Source of the DNA: a virus
Length of the DNA stretch: 32,116 nucleotides
IMG/VR virus record: IMGVR_UViG_3300004369_000075
Coordinates: 1-32,116 of that record
Reading direction: 5' to 3' (one strand)
In this document: positions 1 through 31,667 of the stretch, in pieces
Numbering within the stretch: position 1 is the first letter of the stretch
How the letters are laid out: each line of letters opens with the position of its first letter
Notes under the pieces: generated by a model
What the model was told of the DNA's origin: nothing
What the model saw: the letters and a program-made list of their open reading frames with translations, nothing else
The model's database searches: none
Made by a program: the position numbers and the translations under genes

Positions 1-724
1 TCCTTCCGAAAAACTTCACGTAAATGGTAGTGCAATAATATCCGGCAACCTTGGTGTTGGAACTACTAGTCCAGATGGTAAATTACATATAGATGGTATT
101 TCGGATAGCGTTAGTGGTTTAGTTTTAGAAGCTTCAGGTACTGGAGATAACAGATCTATTGATTTTCAAAATACGGCAGGAGCTTTAAGAATTGGTTTAG
201 AATATGACAACGCTAATATAAACTTAGATATTGTTGATAGAAATAGATCTAAACTTGTTACGTTTAGAGAAGGTGGCAACGTTGGTATTGGAACTACTAG
301 TCCAAGCGCTAAATTAAACGTAGTTGGTGGAGATGCTGATTTTGATTCTGATAACTTTGTAATTAGAAACAATTATTCTGGAAATTTTGGAGGAAGAGTT
401 GTAGCTCATTTTAGGCAAGGATCAGATTTAATAAGGTTTGGTGACGTAGAAGATTATAACACGTCTGCTAGTCTAGATATAGATTATTTGAATCAAACAG
501 CTAGTTTCAGAAGAATGAAATTAGGCGTTGATGTTGCGTCTCCAGCCGCTACATTAGACGTTGATGGAGGTATTAAAATGGGTAATGACAGCTCCACCGC
601 CTCTGCTTCAAAAGCTGGAACACTAAGATATTACACGTCTGGAAACAATAGTTACGTAGATATGTGTATGCAAACAGGGGCTTCAACATACGCTTGGGTT
701 AATATAGTTACAAACACTTGGTAA
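1..724 (+). CDS. Phage tail fibre/receptor-binding protein, C-terminal part (5' end outside window)
   Basis: The frame is open from base 2 of the window to the TAA at 722-724, so this is the last ~240 residues of a longer gene; ATG 488 is internal. The translation contains the fibre repeat N-x-G-(V/I)-G-T-T-S-P-x-(A/G)-K-L-(H/N)-(I/V)-x-G twice (bases ~44-100 and ~275-330) and a degenerate copy, ASPAATLDVDGG, near base 540. This repeat is typical of long trimeric fibres, where it marks beta-structured shaft segments. The end, AGTLRYYTSGNNSYVDMCMQ to AWVNIVTNTW, resembles the short C-terminal caps of marine phage fibres. No intramolecular chaperone (peptidase S74-type) domain follows. Its role is likely host recognition. 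The family call is firm; the receptor cannot be inferred. Confidence 0.85.
   Translation, partial: PSEKLHVNGSAIISGNLGVGTTSPDGKLHIDGISDSVSGLVLEASGTGDNRSIDFQNTAGALRIGLEYDNANINLDIVDRNRSKLVTFREGGNVGIGTTSPSAKLNVVGGDADFDSDNFVIRNNYSGNFGGRVVAHFRQGSDLIRFGDVEDYNTSASLDIDYLNQTASFRRMKLGVDVASPAATLDVDGGIKMGNDSSTASASKAGTLRYYTSGNNSYVDMCMQTGASTYAWVNIVTNTW
44..304 (+). repeat. 30-bp near-identical direct repeat inside fibre gene
   Basis: Bases 44-73 and 275-304 match over 30 nt with two differences; the identical core GGAACTACTAGTCCA lies at 59-73 and 290-304. Both copies encode the GxGTTSP fibre repeat. Nucleotide identity is higher than the protein repeat requires, which points to recent duplication or gene conversion. 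Recombination between copies would delete 231 bp in frame. Confidence 0.8.
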
Positions 725-20346: not shown

Positions 20347-20910
20347 ATGTCTAAAAATAAAATTAAATTTAATAATAATAAACTAAGTAGTTATACTAAA
20401 AGCCTTGAAGATCTTCAAAACGTAATGATAGAAAATAATCATTTAGAAAACGTTTTTGGCGATGGTAAAAATTTAGTTAATAACGAAATATTTAGAATAG
20501 AGAACGAGTTTTCTGACCAGTTGTATATGCGTAAAATGTATATGCCAAAAGAATGCGTTGTTGTAAGTGCAATACACCATACGGAGCATTTTTGGTTTTT
20601 ATTAAAAGGCAGAATATTAGTTACAACAGATGGAGAGCAAGTTGAGCATATAGCGCCTTGCTATCAAAAGTCTATGAAAGGTGCTAAAAGATTAATACTA
20701 TCACTAGAGGACACATTGTTTATAAATGTACATAAAAATCCTACAAATACAAAAGATATGAAAGAGGTAGAAAAATCTTTGTACTCTATAACAATGGAAG
20801 AATATATTAAAAAAGAAAAAGAATATGGCAGGAATAGCAACAGCCGCAATGATTGGAGGCGCCGTAAAAGGTTTGACTGGAATCGCTTCTGGTATAATTG
20901 GTTCAGGTAA
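20347..20910 (+). CDS. Cupin-like protein in the tail/ejection module, with overprinted C-terminus
   Basis: In this 187-aa protein, residues ~58-130 read LYMRKMYMPKECVVVSAIHH, TEHFWFLLKGRILVTTDGEQ, VEHIAPCYQKSMKGAKRLIL and LEDTLFINVHKN. That is the strand order of a small cupin barrel: a G-x-I-H-x-(T)-E-H segment, then (L)-x-G-x-(I)-x-V, then (E)-D-T-x-(F)-x-x-(V)-H. HxxEH and the late His could bind a metal. Similar cupins occur in structural clusters of environmental podoviruses without proven activity. Residues ~160-187 (NSNSRNDWRRRKRFDWNRFW and the last six) lie in an 86-nt overlap with the next gene. This Arg/Trp-rich tail is therefore made by overprinting. The cupin fold is likely; substrate and role are unknown. 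Confidence 0.72.
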   Translation: MSKNKIKFNNNKLSSYTKSLEDLQNVMIENNHLENVFGDGKNLVNNEIFRIENEFSDQLYMRKMYMPKECVVVSAIHHTEHFWFLLKGRILVTTDGEQVEHIAPCYQKSMKGAKRLILSLEDTLFINVHKNPTNTKDMKEVEKSLYSITMEEYIKKEKEYGRNSNSRNDWRRRKRFDWNRFWYNWFR

Positions 20911-21493
20911 AAGGAAACGCGAGCAAAGAGCAGCTCAGGCGGAGTTTAACCGAAGAATGGCCGAGTACCAAAATCTTGATACTAGCAACTTATACAGAAA
21001 TTTAGAAAATACATATGAAGACTTAACTGTTAATCAACAGCAAGCCGACTATACCCGTAGGCAACAAGAAAGAGGTTTTGCTTCAACTATGCAAGGGCTG
21101 CAGGGTGCTGCCGGCGGATCAGGTATTGCGGCATTAGCGCAATCACTAGCTGGGGAGCAAGCTCAAGCGGCAGAAAGAGCAGCTGTATCTATTGGTAGAC
21201 AAGAAAGCCAAAACCAAATGTTGGCGGCGGGACAAGCAGCTACTAACCAAATGGCTGAAATACGTGGCGAGGAGCAGTCAAGAAATTTAAAAAGACAGCA
21301 AACTGAAACATTATTAGGCATGTCACAACAACGTTTAGGAGCAGCTAACCAAGCTAGGCAACAAGCTACTCAATCTATATTAGGCGGGGTTGGAAATTTA
21401 GTAGGAGCGGCAGCGCCTGGTATTGGAAATGTTATGGGAGGCGGTGACTTTTTCTCAGGACAAGCAATGAGCGGTGGTGGAATAACACCTTAA
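20825..21493 (+). CDS. Putative internal virion (ejection) protein, T7 gp14-like in position
   Basis: This 222-aa protein has an Ala/Gly/Ile-rich N-terminus (residues 2-26, MAGIATAAMIGGAVKGLTGI then ASGIIG) able to form a membrane helix or glycine-zipper segment. A long Gln/Ala/Arg-rich helix with NLENTYEDLTVNQQQADYTR near residues 60-80 follows. The C-terminus is Gly-rich (GGVGNLVGAAAPGIG, then GGDFFSGQAMSGGGITP). The order membrane-active N-terminus, alanine/glutamine coil, glycine tail is shared by podovirus internal proteins that enter the host envelope during ejection. It is the first of three genes of rising size, as in T7 14-15-16. The start overlaps the cupin gene by 86 nt; an in-frame ATG at 20849 would shorten but not remove this overlap. 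Confidence 0.68.
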   Translation: MAGIATAAMIGGAVKGLTGIASGIIGSGKRKREQRAAQAEFNRRMAEYQNLDTSNLYRNLENTYEDLTVNQQQADYTRRQQERGFASTMQGLQGAAGGSGIAALAQSLAGEQAQAAERAAVSIGRQESQNQMLAAGQAATNQMAEIRGEEQSRNLKRQQTETLLGMSQQRLGAANQARQQATQSILGGVGNLVGAAAPGIGNVMGGGDFFSGQAMSGGGITP

Positions 21494-21502
21494 GATAAAA
21501 TT

Positions 21503-22843
21503 ATGGCAAATATAAACTTAATAAGAGGAGCAGCAATAGCGGCACCAAAATATTTAGACGCGGGTCAAGCAATTGGCGCAGGTATAAAGCAAACTATGTC
21601 TGGTATAAGCCCGTCGACTTTAGCCAACTTAGCTTCAATGAAAAATACTGACGCTGCGGTTAAAAATTATATAGATGGCTTAAACACTGAAATGGATTTG
21701 GTTGATTTTTCTGAATCTGAGAAAAACTCAATTAAAAGTTATTTATTTAGCCAAAAGCAAAGATATGCTCAGTTAGCTACAGAGCTTACTCAAACTGATG
21801 CAATGAGTCCTTATTATTTAGAACTCAAAAATGAAATGGACAGCATCAGACAATCTTTTGTAAATTTAAAAGACCAAACAGATAAATTTAAAGAGCGTAA
21901 AATACAATATTTAGATGACCTTGAAAACGGAAGACTATCTAAAGGTAATAAAGCAGAAGACTACAATATAGCGGGTAGCGTTTATGGAGGGGGAGCATTG
22001 CTAATTGACCCAGATGGCGGTATTAATGTTGTTACAGATGGAGGGCAAGGCTTAGTGAGATATGCAGATGTTAAAGATCCTAAGCTTAAAGATTTTAAAA
22101 CCGCTGACGAAATACTTGAGCAGAACAATAAGTTATACAATGCCGGCGTGCCATTAGACGCTTCTAAAGAAGCTTTATTAAGAAACCAGCTAAAGAGTAA
22201 GCTTTCGCAAGATGGCTCATTAGAATCAATCGTTGAAGATGGTCTTATTAATAACCAAAGATTAAATGTTGATTTAGACGCTTATGCTACGAGAGAAGAA
22301 GCTATTGATGACGTTGCTGAAATACTACTACAAGGTTACAGAGATAGCGCAGCCGCTGGAGCTGAAGAAAAACGGATTAGAAGAGGTGAAAATAAACCAA
22401 AAGGCGGCAGCGACACTATTACTAATCCTGAAGGCACATATTTAGGATATGGCAGAAACACTGAAGTTGACAAGAAAAACTTTAAAGCTCAATATGATGC
22501 TGTGCAAAAAAGAGCGGCTCTTGGAGACCCTGAAGGCTTAACATTGCTTGATAAAGACGGTAATGTTCTTGTAGAGGGAAGTAAATCAGAAGAAAAATCT
22601 ATAAAGTGGTATTCAAGCGCGGATTCAAAAAAATACCAAGGTAGAGTTCCGAGGGGAGGGGTTTCAGAATGGCTAATAAGACCTTATAGATGGCAAAGAG
22701 ATGATGGAGCTACAATGACTGGAGTACAATGGAGGGACCGCGACGGGAATTGGCAACAGCTTCAGCCCGGTGATTTTGAAAAAGAACTTAACGGAACAGC
22801 AGGCGTAAGCACTAAGACTAATGATAAGCCTAATATGGGTTAA
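21503..22843 (+). CDS. Putative internal virion (ejection) protein 2
   Basis: In this 446-aa protein, residues 1-130 are helical, with SIKSYLFSQKQRYAQLATEL and IRQSFVNLKDQTDKFKERKI. A Gly-rich turn region follows (AGSVYGGGALLIDPDGGINV near 155). Helices of AKEALLRNQLKSKLSQDGSL type and EAIDDVAEILLQGYRDSAAA occupy ~215-285. The end is Trp- and Gly-rich, with WLIRPYRWQRDDGATMTGVQ and WRDRDGNWQQLQPGDFEKEL. No enzymatic motif is visible. It sits between the gp14-like gene and the giant gene, matching the location of T7 gene 15. It is probably a virion component packaged with the DNA. Confidence 0.65.
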   Translation: MANINLIRGAAIAAPKYLDAGQAIGAGIKQTMSGISPSTLANLASMKNTDAAVKNYIDGLNTEMDLVDFSESEKNSIKSYLFSQKQRYAQLATELTQTDAMSPYYLELKNEMDSIRQSFVNLKDQTDKFKERKIQYLDDLENGRLSKGNKAEDYNIAGSVYGGGALLIDPDGGINVVTDGGQGLVRYADVKDPKLKDFKTADEILEQNNKLYNAGVPLDASKEALLRNQLKSKLSQDGSLESIVEDGLINNQRLNVDLDAYATREEAIDDVAEILLQGYRDSAAAGAEEKRIRRGENKPKGGSDTITNPEGTYLGYGRNTEVDKKNFKAQYDAVQKRAALGDPEGLTLLDKDGNVLVEGSKSEEKSIKWYSSADSKKYQGRVPRGGVSEWLIRPYRWQRDDGATMTGVQWRDRDGNWQQLQPGDFEKELNGTAGVSTKTNDKPNMG

Positions 22844-22862: not shown

Positions 22863-25800
22863 ATGCCAGATAACAAAATACTAAAAAATATTTGGAACCA
22901 CCTATCTTCTAAAGAATTAACTTCATCTGATTTTAATACTTGGAAAAACAATATAGAAAATAGCGATGAAATTAAAAACAACGTTTGGAATTACCTAAGC
23001 GATAATGAATTGACCACATCTAGTTTTGATGATTGGTCTAAAAATGTTTTTAGTTCACTGGGAAACCAAAAAGACCCTGCAAAGGAGACTGCGAATGTGG
23101 GGTCGGTAAATCAAGCAGTCGATACGGATTCCAACTTGGGAAATGGTTCTTTGGGATCACAAAAATATGATGAGGCTACACAAATAACCAAAGATGAAAT
23201 TAATTTGATAAACAAGGAAGTTAGTCAAATAAGTTTTGAGCCTATAATTGAAAGTGTTTATACGCCAGGCGGCTATATGGGCTTTGGTGGTGGTTATAAA
23301 GAAGTAAAAAAGCAACCGTATAAAGAATATTTAGATCAAGCTAAAAAATCGCTAGAAAAAAACAAAAAAGAAGGCGAGGAAGTTACACAAGAAAAAATTG
23401 AAGACTACGCTCGCTTTTTAATAAAGCAAGAAAAAGAATTTGATATTCTAAAAAAGAAAAATAAAGATTATTTAAAAGAACTATCAGATGAAGAGCGAAT
23501 AGCTATTGGTCAAGAAAAAGCTGAGTTATATATTAAGCAACAATATGAAATAGAGGAAGACTTAGAGGCTATAACTCTTGCTGCTGAAAAATATAATAAT
23601 AGTGCTAATGTAAAGAATTTAGATAATTGGGGTAAAATTTTATCTGATCCAAATGCTATTGTTGATGTTACATATGCCCGCGAAAACAATGAGCCATTAG
23701 TGCAGCTAAAAGATGGTAGGGTTGTGCCGGAAGCTTTTATTGAAGCATACAATGAAGCTTATGCAAAGCACGAGGCTCACGTTGCTTTTATGAAAAAAGC
23801 AGTCAAAGATTACGAGGATAAAGTTAAATCCCAGCCGGAGCTAGAGAAGGACGTAGACTTCTTAAAAAGAAATTATGATAGATTAGATAAGCTATCTCAA
23901 ATAGCTTATGATTCAGTTGCTGAGGCTGGTATAGGCCAGTTAAATTTCTTTTTAGATGTTTCTGAAATGATAACAGGTGAACCAGCTTCCATGGGATCTG
24001 TGATTAATAAAGAAAACATAAATGCTGTTAGAAAAGAAATGCAGCGCAAAGCTAGGGAGGATTATGCACATAGTGTAAAATTTGAAGATGCTTTTGATAG
24101 TGCTGAAAATTTTGGCGAATGGGCTACTGAAAGTTTAGCTGGACAGACTGGTACATTAGCTCAGTTAGCATCAGGTAATTATATTGGCCTAACTTCCATA
24201 GGTATGAGCTCTTATGGACGTACTATATCTGATATAGAAATTGCAGATGAAGAAAATGGGACAGAAACCTCTAATTTAAACAAAAGATTAACAGCTCTTG
24301 GTTATAGTGCAGCAGAAGTAGGGCTCGGAGCTTTACCAACTATGCGTATACTTAGTAAGTCATCAAAAGCGTTTGGTGATATGAGTATAAGAAACTTTAG
24401 TAAAGGAGTTGGTAATTATGTTTCTAAAAATTGGAAGGCATTACCAGATGCTCTTATTACTGAAGCCGTTTCTGAAGGCGCTACGAGCTTTGTACAAAAT
24501 GGTCTAGACATAATAGGGGGCAGAAGAGACATCCAGAATATTTGGGAGGGAGTTTTAGAAGCTTCTGTAACCGGCGGAATGTTTGGTGTTACCCTAGGCA
24601 GTATGCCACTCCTAAAAGGTATGGGGTTAGCCGCTTTTTCAGATTACAACAAGTATGAGCAATTTAGAGATAATGCTGAAACTATTGGTATTTTGAATAA
24701 AGAGATTGATGGCATGGACAAAAGAACCAAAGCCTATAAAGATCGTGTAAAATTAATAAATGATTTAACAGCCACAAACTCTGATATATTAAATACAATA
24801 GAAGCTAATATTGAAAATAACTTATCGCCTGAAGGGTTTAGATTATATCAACAAGCAACCACTGAGCAAGAACAAATAAGAGCTCAAGCAGAGCAAATAC
24901 AGAACAATAATAACCTTTCGCAAAAAGAAAAAAATACAGCTTTAGATAAATTAAAACAAAGGTTTGATTATTTGCAAGCAGGAAGGAACATATACAAAAA
25001 AGATTTTGGTAATATATTTAATATAGAAACCGAGAGTGTTCAAAATAAATATACCGATTTAGCCGAAAAAGAATTATTAAGAGATAATATAACTGATCCT
25101 AATAAAATAAAAAAGAAAGCGCAGGAGTTATACAGCATAGATAAAATAAAGGATAGAAACCAAAAAGCTATCGATGCCATAAAGAAATTGAAAGCCGCTG
25201 GGATTATTAACAATTATAATTATACAGAATCTAATACCGAGCTTTTAGAATTACTTAAAGACGATTTAGACTTACAGGTTGAGTCTGGATCATTATCTCA
25301 AAATCAGGCAAAAGAAATATATCGTGACGCAAAAAGAAAAATTTCAGATGGTAAGCTTAATGGGTTTAATTTAACTAATATTGAAAATAATAAAATTAAA
25401 TCATACAATATATATGTTTCACAAGAAAACGCTTTAAAAAACGGCAGAACAGAAACAGCTATTCATGAATTAGGCCATTCAATATTTATAGAAAGCTTAG
25501 GTACTAACCCTGATGCGTACAATGGACTAGCTAACGATATACTAAACTATCTTAATAAAAACAATAAATCAGCTTATAATAGAATAGTTGCACAAACAAC
25601 AGGGCAGAGCGCTGATGAAATTTTAACAAACTTTTTAGAAGAAGTTTCTTCAGGTAGACTAGAACTAGAAGCTGCCGCAAACAAAGGCTTTGTAGCCACT
25701 TTAGCTTTAAAATTAAGAAATATTTTTTCAGACGTAACAAATACCCCTGATGTTTTCACTTTTAAAGGTGTTACAGATGCTGCTACTTTTCTAACAGAAT

Positions 25801-28800
25801 TAGGCAATAAGCTAGCTACTGGAACTTTAAGTGTTAAAGATGTTAAAACAATACAACAAGAAGGTATAGCTGGTAAAAAACTAAAAGATTTAAAGGAAGC
25901 AAAGGCTGAATTATTTAAATCAGAGCAAGCTGATATTCAATCTGCATTAAACGCTTTAGAAGATCGATTAATGGATAACTCTATTGATTATGATACCTAC
26001 GAGCGTGAAGTTGAAAAACTTGAAAAACAATTTGAAGTTGCTGAAAAGAAAGCCGCGGTTGAAAAGGCTAAACCTAAAAGAAAAGAAAAGAAAACAGACG
26101 AAAACTTAAAACAAGCCACCGCTAGATCTAAAAAAATACTTGATAAAATAGGCAATGATCGTAATGGTTATAACCCTAACAATCCTAAAATTGTTGAGGT
26201 GCTATCTGGTATGATAGAGTCTAAATCTAAGGTATTTAGAACCTCAGGCGGTACAATTAGAAATTTAACAAACTTGCCTGGGTTTGAAATGGAAAATATG
26301 GTCGCTGAAACCATAGCAGGTATGGTTCCGTTAATCAATAGTTTTAATCCTAAAAAGAATGATTCTTTATTTGGGTATTTAAATGCTCAACTTGCTAATA
26401 AAATGCGAGGAGCTTTAAAATCTGGAAGAGTTACAGATCAAAAATTTACTGAAGATGTATCAACAGCAAAAGGCGTTATAGCTGAAGAAACTACAACTAA
26501 GCAACCAGAAAAGCCTAAGTATGTTAAAATTATGGATGCAGATGTGTTCGATACTAAAGTTATCAATGCTATCTCTGACAAAATGGTTTCCACGGTACGT
26601 ATACTTAAAAATAAACTTATTGCTGCCTTAGGCAAAAACCAAAATACATCTCCGTTAATTGCTGAGATATTGTCTGATATTTCAACGCAAGCGGACATTG
26701 ATATTAAAAAAGCAATGGGTGGTAAAAAAGATGGTGCTTTAAGAAAATTCTTGCTTAAAAATAAACAAGCAATAATTGAAAATTCTACCACCACATTCTT
26801 AATGGGTAAAGATCAAGGTGATCAAGTATTAGGAGGATTACCTATTGCAATACAAAAACAAGTTGATGGTAAGTTTTTATCATATCCTGATTGGGTTGGC
26901 AAAAAAATAGATCGCGAAACAACAGAAAAAAGAGGCGCAACTGCTGGAAACCAAATAGTACGCCGTGTGCCAGCTAATAGAATTTCTGATGCTGATTATC
27001 TATCTTTCTTTTTGCAACCAACAGGTAACCCTATACGAGGTCGTAAGGAAGCATTAGCTAAGGAATTATCAGGAGAACTAGGATTAGAGTTATTTGTTGA
27101 GGCTGTTGAATCAGGCAGTGGACCTATATTCGATGCTTTTGAAGGCAACAGAGAACGAATGGGCGAAGTACTTGGTGATTACTATGCTGGAGAAGTTATT
27201 AAACAAGCCGAGCGCGGTATGGTTAAATTTAGCTTATCTCAAGATATAATAATAGAAACATTTAAAGAACTTTCTGGCAGAACAGAATCTCAAACTACTA
27301 AAAATTTAAATACATTATATAAAAAATACCCTAAGCTAAGAGATCAAATAGAGGAAGAGATTGTTAAACCATATAAAAATTTATGGAAAAGAATTAATGA
27401 GCTTGTAGAATTATCAAAAGATAATGATAAAAAGTTAAACAGAGGTAAAGCTTATGAAATAGCTTTCAGCGAAATGCTAAATAAGGTTGGAGGTAAAATT
27501 AATAATGTTAAAGTAGAAAAAGATGGTGTTGATGTAACATTTCAAATTGGTAAAGACGTAATAAAGCTAGAAACTAAATTAGATACCGATGCTAAATTTG
27601 GCAGTCCTCAAGTTTTTGGTATTTATGATTTTATATTAAACGGCACACCAATTAATTTTGAATGGGCTACAAAAGAGCAAAATAATCTTTTAAATGAAGG
27701 ATTAAAAAGTATGCTTCCGGCGTTTAAAGCTTATGTAAATAAACTTAAAGAATTAAATGGCGTTGTACAAGAAGACGGCAGCATATTAATATCCGAGCAA
27801 GCAATGGATCCTTTATATAAAAAGGATCAAAGTCAAGCGCTATTTGAAAAAACAAGAACCTACATAGACTTACCCTGGGATATAGTAAATAGCTGGTATG
27901 CTCAAAATAATAATGATATTATAAATATATTAGAAATAGGTGCATTTAATTTAAAAGAAAACCCTGGCCCATATTCAGCATATTTGCCAGAATTTGCTAC
28001 ATATACAGACGGAGTAATGGACAAGGGTATACAAGCCCGTGGCGTATTTTATTCATCCGGAAAAGGAGAAACTAAAAAAATAAAATTTGGATTTGTATTT
28101 GAAATTAAAAATGCCGCTTTTAAAGATAAATTAACAAAAAAAGGTGGTAAACAAATAAATACAGAGCTTGGCTTAGAAACATTTCTAGGTGTTAAAACAA
28201 AACCAATAAGAGAAGGAAAACTAGAAAAAGGAGCTAAAAGACTTTCAGCTAGCCTTACTTCTACCTCTGATATTAATGTTGTTGCGGATAGACAATATAA
28301 AGGGCAATTTAATTATGACTTTGAAATAAACGGTATTGACTATGACGGAACAGGGTTTGGATTTAATATGGTTGATCAAGCATTTGATAACACTGACCTA
28401 TATATAAATGCAATGTCTGAAATTACTGGTGCAAAAAATGTTAAAACTAGCAAATACCAATATTTTGTATTTGGCGAAAGTGACAGCGGCAGCACAGAAG
28501 TAATAGGCAGAGAAAGTGCTGTATGGGATGGCAAAAAATATGTTTTTCCAGAATCCGACGTAAAACAATCATTAAACGTATTTGGGTCGTTAGCTAATAA
28601 TTTTGTTAAGCAAGCTAAAGAAGGTAAATTAGATGGTATAGTTTTTACAGGTAAGGAGGCTAGCCGTAGAAAGCTTTATAGTGCAATAACTATTAAATTT
28701 GCAAATCAACTAGGTTGGAATTATAAAATAATATCACGCAGAGAAGCTGCAGGTGGAGATATATATGTTTTAGGTAAATCAAAATTCAAAGAAATACCTA

Positions 28801-31667
28801 TAGAAAGAATAAAATTATCACAACAAGCATCAGATAATACGCTATTTTTAGGCGCTGTATTAAATCCAGTGGTCAATATGAAAAAATTTGATCCTTATGA
28901 AATGGCTGATATTATTGCTTCTGAATTATTTAGAGATTCAAAAAAATATAGAAACAGACAGAAATTTGAGTATCTTTATAAAAACCTTACAAAAGAAGAG
29001 CAATATCAAGTTCAAAAAGAAATGCGCAAAAAGAACTTAACTCCTTTTGGAAGAGGTATAAGCGTTTGGGATTTTGATGACACGCTAGCCACCACGAAAA
29101 GTAATGTATTATATACTTTGCCTGGAGGTATAACAGGTAAGCTTAATGCAGAAGAATTTGCAAAACGTGGTGATGAGCTTTTACAGCAAGGCGCTGAATT
29201 TGACTTTAGTGAATTTGAAAAAGTAATGAAAGGAGCTAAAGGGCCTATGTTTGAAAAAGCCCTGGAACGCAATAAGCGATTTGGCAATGAAAGCGTTTTT
29301 ATATTAACCGCTAGACCCGCTAATTCGGCAACTGCTATACACGAGTTTTTGAAAGGTATTGGCCTTGATATTAAGCTAGAAAATATTGTAGGCTTAGGCA
29401 ATAGCACCGCGCAAGCAAAAGCTGACTGGGTTAAAGGTATGGTTGCCGAGGGTTATAATGATTTTTACTTTGCTGATGATGCTTATAAAAATGTTAAAGC
29501 TGTACAACAAGTTTTAGAAGTTGCTGATGTAAAAAGCAAAGTGCAACAGGCTGCTATTAAATTTAGTCAAACGGCTGATCCTAAAATATTAGACAAAGAA
29601 TTTAACTTAATGCTCGAGCGCACTAAAGGCGTTAAAGCAGGTGCGGTTATATCACCGTCAAGAGCTGAGCAACTAGGCAAGGGTAAAGGTAGATTAGATT
29701 TATTCTTGCCGCCTAATGCTGAAGACTTCCAAGGATTACTTTATAAGTTCTTAGGTAAAGGCAAACAGGGTGATGCTGATATGAAGTTTTTTAAAGAAAA
29801 CTTATTTGATCCGTTCAATCGTGCTGAAAATGCAATGAGTACGTTTAGACAACAATTAGCGGATAACTTAAAAATATTAAAGAGAGAGCTTGGTAATATT
29901 GATGAGGATATTGATGCTGAAACAATAAAGAAAATAGAAGCCATAGGCTTTACTCCTGATCAAGCCGTCCGTGTATTTGTGTGGAATAGACTAGGTGAAG
30001 ATATACCTGATTTAACAAAACAAGAAAAAGCTAAAATACTTAGTGTAGTTAGGAGAGATGCAAGTTTAATGCGATACGCTAGAGAGTTAATGAAAATTAC
30101 TGAGCAATTTGGAGGTTATCCTCCACCATCTAAAACTTGGTTTGCTGGTAATTCAACTAGTGATCTTTATCAATATGCTAATGAAAATGTTAGAGCTAAA
30201 TATTTAGAGCAATGGCAAGCTAATGCTGATGCAATCTTTAGTCCAAAAAATATGACTAAGATACAGGCTTTATACGGTAAAGATTTTGCTAAAAACCTAA
30301 AAGAAGTATTACGCAGAATGAAGTCCGGTAGTAACAGGCCATTAAACCTAAATGACACAGGTAGTAAAATGCTTGACTACATTAACGGATCAGTTGGTAC
30401 TATAATGTTCTTAAATATGCGTTCTGCGGTGCTTCAGACTATTTCAGCGGTTAACTTTTTAAACTGGCATGATAATAATATATTTAAGGCAGGAGCAACT
30501 TTAGCTAACCCTAAAAACTTTGTTAAAACATTTATGGAAATTATGAATTCTGATTTCCTAAAACAAAGACGTAATGGTTTAGAAATAAATGTATCTGAAG
30601 CTGAAATTGCAAATGCAGTAGAACAAAGTAAAAATAAGGCAAAAGCAATATTTAGTAAAATAATTAAATTTGGATATAAGCCTACGCAATTTGCAGATAG
30701 CTTTGCTATTGCAGCGGGTGGTACTTCGTTTTTAATTAATAGAACTAATACATATGTAAAAACCGGTATGTCTTATGCTGAAGCAAGAGAGCAAGCGTTT
30801 ACAGATTTTAGAGCAATAGCAGAGGAGAACCAGCAGTCATCAAGAACAGATAGAACATCTAATATACAAGCAAGTAATTTAGGGCGTTTAGTATTTGCAT
30901 TTAACAATACGCCTTTCCAGATGACTCGTTTGTTTAAGAAGGCTACATTAGACTTAGTAAACGGCAGAGGCGATATTAAAACTAATATTAGTAAAATGCT
31001 TTATTACGGGGCAATACAAAATGTTATATTCTTTTCACTGCAGCAGGCATTTATGGCTATGCTATTTGGAGCCGACGAAGATGATAGAGAAGATCTAGAC
31101 GACAGAAGTGAAAGACTATTAAATTCTACTATAGATTCAATTTTAAGAGGATCTGGACTTCCTGGGGCGGTTATAAGCACAGCTAAGAATGTTATAATGG
31201 AATACGCTGCTCAAGAGGCTAAGGGTGATTGGAGAGCTGATCATGGCAAAACATTAATACAAGCATTAAACTTTTCGCCACCCCTTGGATCAAAAGCATC
31301 AAGAATATATAGTGCTTTGAAAGGTAAGAAATATGAAGAAACAAGTTTTGATGCGTTACGTAATCAGAGTAAAATAATTTCTGCTATTACAAATATACCT
31401 GTTGATAGAACAATTACTAAGATTGACAACCTTCGTGTTGCTACTAGCGAGCCAATTGAAACATGGAAACGATTAGCATTATTTGCAGGATGGGATCAAT
31501 GGTCACTTGGAATCTATGACGACTTAAAAGCTATTGAGGATAAAGAAAAAGGTAAAGAAAAGAAAAAATCACGCAGCGAAATAATGAAAGAAGTATGGCG
31601 CAAGCGTAAGGAAGAAGATAAGAAACACAGAGATAGTATTATAAATACATTTAGAAAGAAAAAATAA
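22863..31667 (+). CDS. Giant multi-domain (polyvalent-type) virion/ejection protein with peptidase, nuclease-like and HAD domains
   Basis: This protein is 2934 aa, more than twice T7 gp16. Domains in order: a 31-residue tandem repeat (W11/W42, F24/F55, W27/W58); helices; a hydrophobic Gly-rich region at ~540-580 (WEGVLEASVTGGMFGVTLGS); a zinc peptidase motif HELGH (868-872) with Glu 926/927 as possible third ligand; a helical part with FNPKKNDSLFGYLNAQLANK (near 1161); a PD-(D/E)XK-like pattern with E1532, D1557 and E1570-T-K1572; a mixed domain at ~1800-1980; a HAD domain (DFDDT 2070-2074, T2149, DD 2205-2206); and a helical C-terminus from ~2235 (FLPPNAEDFQGLLYKFLGKG, SNRPLNLNDTGSKMLDYING, FNNTPFQMTRLFKKATLDLV) of a type conserved in large marine phage proteins. 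This fits polyvalent proteins injected with DNA. Activities are predictions from motifs. Confidence 0.8.
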   Translation: MPDNKILKNIWNHLSSKELTSSDFNTWKNNIENSDEIKNNVWNYLSDNELTTSSFDDWSKNVFSSLGNQKDPAKETANVGSVNQAVDTDSNLGNGSLGSQKYDEATQITKDEINLINKEVSQISFEPIIESVYTPGGYMGFGGGYKEVKKQPYKEYLDQAKKSLEKNKKEGEEVTQEKIEDYARFLIKQEKEFDILKKKNKDYLKELSDEERIAIGQEKAELYIKQQYEIEEDLEAITLAAEKYNNSANVKNLDNWGKILSDPNAIVDVTYARENNEPLVQLKDGRVVPEAFIEAYNEAYAKHEAHVAFMKKAVKDYEDKVKSQPELEKDVDFLKRNYDRLDKLSQIAYDSVAEAGIGQLNFFLDVSEMITGEPASMGSVINKENINAVRKEMQRKAREDYAHSVKFEDAFDSAENFGEWATESLAGQTGTLAQLASGNYIGLTSIGMSSYGRTISDIEIADEENGTETSNLNKRLTALGYSAAEVGLGALPTMRILSKSSKAFGDMSIRNFSKGVGNYVSKNWKALPDALITEAVSEGATSFVQNGLDIIGGRRDIQNIWEGVLEASVTGGMFGVTLGSMPLLKGMGLAAFSDYNKYEQFRDNAETIGILNKEIDGMDKRTKAYKDRVKLINDLTATNSDILNTIEANIENNLSPEGFRLYQQATTEQEQIRAQAEQIQNNNNLSQKEKNTALDKLKQRFDYLQAGRNIYKKDFGNIFNIETESVQNKYTDLAEKELLRDNITDPNKIKKKAQELYSIDKIKDRNQKAIDAIKKLKAAGIINNYNYTESNTELLELLKDDLDLQVESGSLSQNQAKEIYRDAKRKISDGKLNGFNLTNIENNKIKSYNIYVSQENALKNGRTETAIHELGHSIFIESLGTNPDAYNGLANDILNYLNKNNKSAYNRIVAQTTGQSADEILTNFLEEVSSGRLELEAAANKGFVATLALKLRNIFSDVTNTPDVFTFKGVTDAATFLTELGNKLATGTLSVKDVKTIQQEGIAGKKLKDLKEAKAELFKSEQADIQSALNALEDRLMDNSIDYDTYEREVEKLEKQFEVAEKKAAVEKAKPKRKEKKTDENLKQATARSKKILDKIGNDRNGYNPNNPKIVEVLSGMIESKSKVFRTSGGTIRNLTNLPGFEMENMVAETIAGMVPLINSFNPKKNDSLFGYLNAQLANKMRGALKSGRVTDQKFTEDVSTAKGVIAEETTTKQPEKPKYVKIMDADVFDTKVINAISDKMVSTVRILKNKLIAALGKNQNTSPLIAEILSDISTQADIDIKKAMGGKKDGALRKFLLKNKQAIIENSTTTFLMGKDQGDQVLGGLPIAIQKQVDGKFLSYPDWVGKKIDRETTEKRGATAGNQIVRRVPANRISDADYLSFFLQPTGNPIRGRKEALAKELSGELGLELFVEAVESGSGPIFDAFEGNRERMGEVLGDYYAGEVIKQAERGMVKFSLSQDIIIETFKELSGRTESQTTKNLNTLYKKYPKLRDQIEEEIVKPYKNLWKRINELVELSKDNDKKLNRGKAYEIAFSEMLNKVGGKINNVKVEKDGVDVTFQIGKDVIKLETKLDTDAKFGSPQVFGIYDFILNGTPINFEWATKEQNNLLNEGLKSMLPAFKAYVNKLKELNGVVQEDGSILISEQAMDPLYKKDQSQALFEKTRTYIDLPWDIVNSWYAQNNNDIINILEIGAFNLKENPGPYSAYLPEFATYTDGVMDKGIQARGVFYSSGKGETKKIKFGFVFEIKNAAFKDKLTKKGGKQINTELGLETFLGVKTKPIREGKLEKGAKRLSASLTSTSDINVVADRQYKGQFNYDFEINGIDYDGTGFGFNMVDQAFDNTDLYINAMSEITGAKNVKTSKYQYFVFGESDSGSTEVIGRESAVWDGKKYVFPESDVKQSLNVFGSLANNFVKQAKEGKLDGIVFTGKEASRRKLYSAITIKFANQLGWNYKIISRREAAGGDIYVLGKSKFKEIPIERIKLSQQASDNTLFLGAVLNPVVNMKKFDPYEMADIIASELFRDSKKYRNRQKFEYLYKNLTKEEQYQVQKEMRKKNLTPFGRGISVWDFDDTLATTKSNVLYTLPGGITGKLNAEEFAKRGDELLQQGAEFDFSEFEKVMKGAKGPMFEKALERNKRFGNESVFILTARPANSATAIHEFLKGIGLDIKLENIVGLGNSTAQAKADWVKGMVAEGYNDFYFADDAYKNVKAVQQVLEVADVKSKVQQAAIKFSQTADPKILDKEFNLMLERTKGVKAGAVISPSRAEQLGKGKGRLDLFLPPNAEDFQGLLYKFLGKGKQGDADMKFFKENLFDPFNRAENAMSTFRQQLADNLKILKRELGNIDEDIDAETIKKIEAIGFTPDQAVRVFVWNRLGEDIPDLTKQEKAKILSVVRRDASLMRYARELMKITEQFGGYPPPSKTWFAGNSTSDLYQYANENVRAKYLEQWQANADAIFSPKNMTKIQALYGKDFAKNLKEVLRRMKSGSNRPLNLNDTGSKMLDYINGSVGTIMFLNMRSAVLQTISAVNFLNWHDNNIFKAGATLANPKNFVKTFMEIMNSDFLKQRRNGLEINVSEAEIANAVEQSKNKAKAIFSKIIKFGYKPTQFADSFAIAAGGTSFLINRTNTYVKTGMSYAEAREQAFTDFRAIAEENQQSSRTDRTSNIQASNLGRLVFAFNNTPFQMTRLFKKATLDLVNGRGDIKTNISKMLYYGAIQNVIFFSLQQAFMAMLFGADEDDREDLDDRSERLLNSTIDSILRGSGLPGAVISTAKNVIMEYAAQEAKGDWRADHGKTLIQALNFSPPLGSKASRIYSALKGKKYEETSFDALRNQSKIISAITNIPVDRTITKIDNLRVATSEPIETWKRLALFAGWDQWSLGIYDDLKAIEDKEKGKEKKKSRSEIMKEVWRKRKEEDKKHRDSIINTFRKKK

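What the first reader, a model, noticed from the sequence alone, without database searches (positions are those of the whole stretch)
22863..31667. 2934-residue virion protein combining metallopeptidase, nuclease-like and HAD modules
A single uninterrupted gene of 8.8 kb sits at the end of what looks like a gp14-gp15-gp16-type ejection module. It carries motifs for at least three unrelated enzyme folds plus a long helical C-terminus. This is the architecture of polyvalent proteins, which are thought to enter the cell with phage DNA and act early against host functions. The specific combination and order (zincin, helical, PD-(D/E)XK-like, mixed domain, HAD, helical) may not be described for a Bacteroidota-type podovirus. 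Motifs are seen directly; co-injection and function are inferred.
Basis: partly seen in the sequence, partly recalled or inferred. Interest (0 to 1): 0.75.

Follow-up and report, generated by a model that had tools for sequence, protein, structure and literature searches.

The report
Giant injected phage protein with sigma module
This marine phage gene encodes one 2,934-residue protein, very probably carried in the virus particle, that strings together a protease, an RNA-polymerase-binding (sigma-factor-like) module, a nuclease and a phosphatase, and hundreds of uncultured viruses carry versions with interchangeable parts.

Summary
Window 22863-31667 is one intact 2934-codon gene at the end of a head-tail operon with the same gene order as Cellulophaga phage phi38:1, whose positional homologue (phi40:1 gp101) is recorded as found in virions by MS/MS. 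At least 437 relatives of its C-terminus exist in IMG/VR; 80 complete giants were compared, including this one. The C-terminus folds like many phage 'large polyvalent proteins'. (1) The 'helical' stretch after the peptidase holds a sigma-70 region-2-like domain (73/80): most profile hits in the PDB are sigma factors, and hhalign scores 31.8 against shuffled 7.7 +/- 1.1. (2) The HAD has one insertion slot; in 11/72 relatives it holds a P-loop kinase, a nested kinase-phosphatase. Best explanation: an ejected polyvalent effector that binds host RNA polymerase and processes nucleic-acid ends, perhaps cut by its own peptidase. Injection, processing and activity are inferred. New variant of a known kind.

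The parts
22863..31667 (+). whole giant gene, 2934 aa, polyvalent-type protein
   Evidence: single open frame; 80 complete giants compared
22890..23147 (+). aa 10-95, N-terminal region with two copies of a W-x-x-L-T-x-x-x-F-x-x-W type repeat
   Evidence: HMM found in 17 of 80 giants
23850..24698 (+). aa 330-612, ejection-protein core shared with phi38:1 gp101 and the elemo giant
   Evidence: HMM in 40 of 80 giants and in phi38:1 and elemo; blastp to gp101 over aa 290-616, 25% identity
25407..25844 (+). aa 849-994, zincin metallopeptidase-like domain
   Evidence: HMM in 76 of 80; E869, H872 and E919 invariant in 55 rows
25464..25478 (+). HELGH (HExxH) zinc motif, aa 868-872
26115..26444 (+). 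aa 1085-1194, sigma-70 region-2-like domain
   Evidence: VIA rows all sigma factors; profile vs PDB; hhalign with shuffled controls; 73 of 80 giants
26493..27098 (+). aa 1211-1412, conserved region after the sigma-like domain, no known fold
   Evidence: 75 of 80 as part of the wider profile; no PDB relative
27318..27791 (+). aa 1486-1643, PD-(D/E)XK nuclease-like cassette (E1532, D1557, E1570, K1572)
   Evidence: catalytic pattern invariant in 9 of 9; strand order in model; Pfam Hjc in one relative at E 0.011
27840..28337 (+). aa 1660-1825, cassette of unknown fold, shared only with L006
28464..28775 (+). aa 1868-1971, possible GNAT-like acyltransferase domain, tentative; unique to this protein
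   Evidence: strand-helix order; many GNAT rows in Foldseek at E about 0.5-1.3
29052..29633 (+). aa 2064-2257, HAD phosphatase domain
   Evidence: 80 of 80; PHROG 415 polynucleotide kinase E 1.4e-5; fold rows HAD phosphatases including T4 Pnkp
29124..29141 (+). insertion slot in the HAD after motif I (aa about 2088-2093), empty here, a P-loop kinase in 11 relatives
29580..31664 (+). aa 2240-2934, helical C-terminal domain of polyvalent type
   Evidence: model; BFVD fold matches; conserved in all relatives
20825..21493 (+). putative small ejection-module gene (gp14-like position)
   Evidence: weak match to phi38:1 gp099, whose phi40:1 counterpart is MS/MS detected
21503..22843 (+). putative second ejection-module gene (position of phi38:1 gp100)
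   Evidence: position only; no sequence match at E 1e-3

Best explanation
The gene encodes a large polyvalent protein packed in the virion of a phage of Flavobacteriia-type hosts and delivered with the ejection proteins ahead of or with the DNA. The N-terminal half carries the ejection core shared with phi38:1 gp101; the helical C-terminus is a domain common to phage polyvalent proteins, probably for packaging or ejection. Between them sits effector cargo with a fixed backbone (zincin, then sigma-2-like domain, then HAD phosphatase) and swappable cassettes (nuclease, possible acyltransferase; a kinase inside the HAD in relatives). In the cell the zincin may cut the polyprotein and release modules; the sigma-2-like domain would bind host RNA polymerase at the clamp helices, either recruiting polymerase to the incoming DNA or displacing host sigma; the HAD would process nucleic-acid ends or a nucleotide signal. 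Shown here: gene, domains, conservation, order, synteny. Inferred: injection, self-processing, polymerase binding, enzyme activity.
For: MS/MS-annotated syntenic homologue in phi40:1; conserved head-tail synteny; C-terminal fold shared with annotated polyvalent proteins; zincin, nuclease and HAD catalytic residues invariant across divergent relatives; sigma-2-like domain by profile, fold and shuffled controls with fixed order in 71 of 71; a separate sigma factor in 8 of 9 long relatives and no beta'-type polymerase (control positive), which fits dependence on host polymerase.
Against: No direct virion or infection data for this family. The sigma-like domain lacks the Trp-Trp dyad of region 2.4 and no region 4 was found, so it cannot be a normal sigma factor. 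Single sequences score weakly (Sigma70_r2 best E 0.0046 in 5 of 57 members). The zincin model lacked a clear sheet, probably because the segment was cut at aa 838. Processing has no evidence at all.
Confidence: 0.55

Rival explanations
1. Mainly a structural ejection protein: the enzyme-like domains serve packing, or act only in virion maturation (the zincin as a processing peptidase, as proposed for P1 DdrB), with no activity in the host.
For: Homologue is a virion component; Iyer et al. discuss pre-packaging cleavage of P1 DdrB; phi38:1 gp101 itself has no detectable zincin, sigma-like or HAD domain.
Against: Catalytic residues are kept while surrounding sequence diverges; cassettes and kinase inserts swap between relatives, as expected of effectors rather than structure.
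Confidence: 0.25
2. The HAD (with kinase in some relatives) is an end-healing enzyme of the Pnkp type that repairs DNA or tRNA cut by host defences at entry.
For: PHROG 415 and 505 polynucleotide kinase matches; T4 Pnkp among the best folds; nested P-loop kinase in 11 relatives.
Against: No RNA ligase found in 16 relatives (PF09414, control positive; PF09511 control silent). Many unrelated HADs score as well as Pnkp. The kinase also resembles zeta toxin.
Confidence: 0.35
3. The sigma resemblance is a common three-helix arrangement and has nothing to do with RNA polymerase.
For: VIA Z scores of 5.6-8.1 are in the range of chance for helical folds; the Trp-Trp dyad is missing; single-sequence hits are insignificant.
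Against: Profile hits in the PDB are mostly sigma factors while neighbouring domains give none; hhalign 31.8 against shuffled maximum 10.4.
Confidence: 0.2

Closest known systems
Phage large polyvalent proteins (Iyer et al. 2017, PMC5512222)
   Same: Giant phage protein, zincin plus unrelated enzyme domains, shared helical C-terminal fold, expected to be packaged.
   Different: Sigma-2-like domain and HAD (with nested kinase) are not mentioned in the main text of that paper (supplements not read).
Cellulophaga phage phi38:1/phi40:1 gp101 (Pervagoviridae)
   Same: Same genomic position, shared aa 290-616 core, MS/MS-annotated virion protein.
   Different: gp101 is 1691 aa and no zincin, sigma-like, nuclease or HAD domain was detected in it.
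Flavobacterium phage elemo giant 'structural protein' (3694 aa)
   Same: Same position, ejection core and a zincin-type motif.
   Different: No sigma-like or HAD domain detected.
crAss001 cargo proteins (PMC10172136)
   Same: Cargo carried in the virion of a related head-tail lineage; weak muzzle C-terminal match in the window.
   Different: crAss001 carries RNA polymerase-related proteins as cargo; no beta'-type polymerase was found in relatives here.
T4 polynucleotide kinase-phosphatase
   Same: HAD phosphatase fold and, in relatives, a P-loop kinase in the same polypeptide.
   Different: In these relatives the kinase is nested inside the HAD between motifs I and II; in T4 Pnkp the domains follow one another (own knowledge). 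The window's copy has no kinase.

Membership tests
Phage polyvalent protein | two or more unrelated enzymatic domains in one polypeptide | tested here: met
   zincin, nuclease and HAD signatures
Phage polyvalent protein | shared polyvalent-associated domains | tested here: met
   C-terminal fold matches annotated polyvalent proteins; no Pfam LPD domain by sequence
Phage polyvalent protein | injected with the DNA | not testable with these tools
   only a homologue's virion presence is recorded
Zincin metallopeptidase | HExxH plus third-ligand Glu in the next helix | tested here: met
Zincin metallopeptidase | three-stranded sheet beside the HExxH helix | tested here: inconclusive
   segment began at aa 838 and the model shows helices but no clear sheet
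Sigma-70 factor | region 2 homology | tested here: met
Sigma-70 factor | region 2.4 Trp-Trp dyad for -10 melting | tested here: not met
   alignment columns aa 1175-1176
Sigma-70 factor | region 4 helix-turn-helix | tested here: inconclusive
   no hit for the following region
PD-(D/E)XK nuclease | E, D and ExK catalytic residues in order | tested here: met
   invariant in 9 of 9
PD-(D/E)XK nuclease | alpha-beta-beta-beta-alpha-beta core | tested here: inconclusive
   secondary structure fits; no structural match listed
HAD phosphatase | motifs I-IV | tested here: met
   invariant in 51 rows
HAD phosphatase | Rossmannoid HAD fold | tested here: met
   HAD phosphatases fill the fold rows for this region, Z up to 8.6
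Polynucleotide kinase-phosphatase (Pnkp) | kinase and phosphatase in one protein | tested here: not met
   window HAD has no kinase; 11 of 72 relatives do
Pervagoviridae-like / crAss-related podovirus | homologous head-tail genes in the same order as phi38:1 | tested here: met
   GroES-like to the tail genes and giant align in order; TerL 38%, portal 38%, MCP 34% identical. Formal family placement not tested.

The most novel reading that the evidence does not exclude
An uncultured and widespread phage family delivers a sigma-factor-derived RNA-polymerase-binding domain inside its virion, fused to a protease and a phosphatase, so that host polymerase is seized at the moment of entry, before any phage gene is expressed. 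I found no report of a virion-delivered sigma domain in the literature searched.
Probability: 0.4. Interest if true: 0.85.

Novelty: new variant of a known kind. Interest (0 to 1): 0.64.

Why it matters
How phages that lack their own virion polymerase take over transcription at entry is open for most Bacteroidota phages. A sigma-2-like module fixed between a peptidase and a phosphatase in 71 of 80 giants suggests that polymerase capture can be part of the ejected cargo. The HAD slot and the cassette region give a natural series of swaps (empty, kinase, nuclease) through which polyvalent effectors could be compared within one family.

Tried and rejected
Whole-protein Pfam and PDB scans of the window protein found nothing useful. 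A cassette-based scan (A3) returned only the already known contig of L006. Genome contigs gave no relative. The C-terminal domain has no PDB fold: the best Foldseek rows are LeuT transporters with TM about 0.1, rejected as chance helical similarity. The post-sigma region gave only insignificant HipA_C hits. Matches of the coiled coil at aa 1003-1074 to RNA polymerase beta' clamp helices were not used, because SMC and flagellar coils match equally well. A T7-type polymerase search had a silent control and proves nothing; likewise PF09511. Reading the L024 and L069 inserts by eye as ART and GNAT was not confirmed by Pfam. Direct kinship of the giant's sigma-like domain with the phages' own sigma factors was weak. 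A single-sequence PDB search with the L040 segment gave no sigma hit, so the sigma case rests on profiles.

Full report
OBSERVATION. The gene 22863-31667 is one open frame of 2934 codons with an ATG start. The window is a 32,116-bp IMG/VR viral fragment. The genes before it are a GroES-like co-chaperonin, TerL, portal, a scaffold-position gene, the major capsid protein, connector-type proteins and a muzzle-like tail protein, then smaller genes and two putative ejection-module genes. The same order, ending in a giant gene, is found in Cellulophaga phage phi38:1, in elemo phages of Flavobacterium and in the metagenomic genome MW202828. By TerL the nearest are MW202828 (63%), elemo (46%) and phi38:1 (38%), so a Bacteroidota host is likely.

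VIRION EVIDENCE. Residues 290-616 match phi38:1 gp101 (25% identity, E 5e-13). An HMM of aa 330-612 also finds the elemo giant. This is homology evidence only; the window's own protein has not been seen in a particle.

RELATIVES. There was none in 84,980 bacterial and archaeal genomes and none in the INPHARED phages, so the family appears lytic and uncultured as far as these collections show. BFVD holds close relatives only as 'uncultured virus' and 'Virus NIOZ-UU157'. I compared 80 complete giants (including this one), mostly 2270-3730 aa; one, L047, is a shorter 1391-aa frame.

ARCHITECTURE. HMM counts over the 80: HAD 80, zincin 76, sigma-like plus following region 75 (73 with a sigma-only profile), ejection core 40, N-terminal repeat 17, nuclease 9, the aa 1660-1825 cassette 2, and the aa 1825-1990 cassette only here. 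In all 71 with the three backbone domains the order is zincin, sigma-like, HAD. The stretch between sigma-like and HAD is a cassette region. The HAD has a second slot after motif I: empty in 56 of 72 representatives, a P-loop kinase in 11 (AAA_33 over its cut-off), other inserts in L024 and L069, and three with a variant DxDET motif. The window's HAD is the empty form.

ENZYME DOMAINS. Zincin: E869, H872 and E919 are invariant in a 55-row alignment. Nuclease: E1532, D1557, E1570 and K1572 are four of five invariant columns in nine sequences, and the model shows three strands followed by a helix as in the PD-(D/E)XK core. HAD: motifs I-IV are invariant in 51 rows, and the fold rows are HAD phosphatases including T4 Pnkp. 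The possible GNAT rests on a low-confidence part of the model.

SIGMA-LIKE DOMAIN. The structure model of aa 838-1995 gave, for aa ~1085-1194, sigma factors as matches: T4 gp55, SigE, sigma-28, sigma-S and SigA (Z 5.6-8.1, which alone could be a common helical arrangement). A 57-member profile searched against 177,635 PDB sequences returned sigma factors as most of its 18 hits, best E 6e-4. Profiles of the neighbouring domains returned none. hhalign against E. coli RpoD, RpoS and FliA plus eight phage sigma factors scored 31.8 (P 4e-5); sixty column-shuffled controls gave 7.7 +/- 1.1 (maximum 10.4), and other domains of the same proteins gave 11-14. The match covers regions 2.2-2.4. The core aromatic (Y1172, aromatic in 57/57) is kept but the Trp-Trp dyad is not, so binding polymerase is more likely than normal promoter melting. 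Eight of nine long relatives also encode a separate, full-length sigma factor of about 250 aa. No beta'-type polymerase was found in nine relatives.

C-TERMINUS. Residues ~2240-2934 are helical, conserved in all relatives compared (these were selected by that region) and match, by predicted fold, many phage proteins named as polyvalent. There is no solved relative.

MECHANISM. Shown: domains, conservation, order, synteny. Inferred: packing, ejection, self-cleavage, polymerase binding, end processing. The HAD as an RNA-repair enzyme is weakened by the absence of a detectable RNA ligase in 16 relatives, several of them fragments.

KNOWN VERSUS NEW. Polyvalent proteins are known (PMC5512222). A text search of that paper for 'sigma', 'phosphatase' and 'polynucleotide kinase' found none, and literature searches found no virion-delivered sigma domain. 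The library holds only open-access papers and supplements were not read, so absence is not proof.

Noticed in passing
L091-L098 (relatives' contigs): Eight of nine long relatives carry a separate 250-256 aa phage sigma factor with region 2 and a region-4-like C-terminus.
   Followed up: partly
L024:10034-10396 and L069:10055-10387: Two relatives have other inserts in the HAD slot; by eye one looks ART-like and one GNAT-like, not confirmed by Pfam.
   Followed up: partly
L003:12401-12727; also ends of the giants in L004, L005 and others: Tandem Cys/His motifs (CxxxxxxGxxC...CxxH) at the extreme C-terminus of some giants, absent from the window's.
   Followed up: no
window 2-724: Open-ended ORF with repeated VGTTSPxxKLHV-type motifs, typical of tail fibres.
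   Followed up: no
window 20347-20910 and 20825-21493: A cupin-like protein (PHROG short tail fibre/adhesin) overlaps the next gene by 86 bases.
   Followed up: no
L007, L008, L009, L076, L082: Giants without an intact HExxH motif; some keep a variant (EAGH/EVGH).
   Followed up: partly
L087:741-12320 (-): The MW202828 giant, annotated 'reticulocyte binding/rhoptry protein', is a polyvalent-type protein with two HEFGH motifs; the annotation looks wrong.
   Followed up: partly
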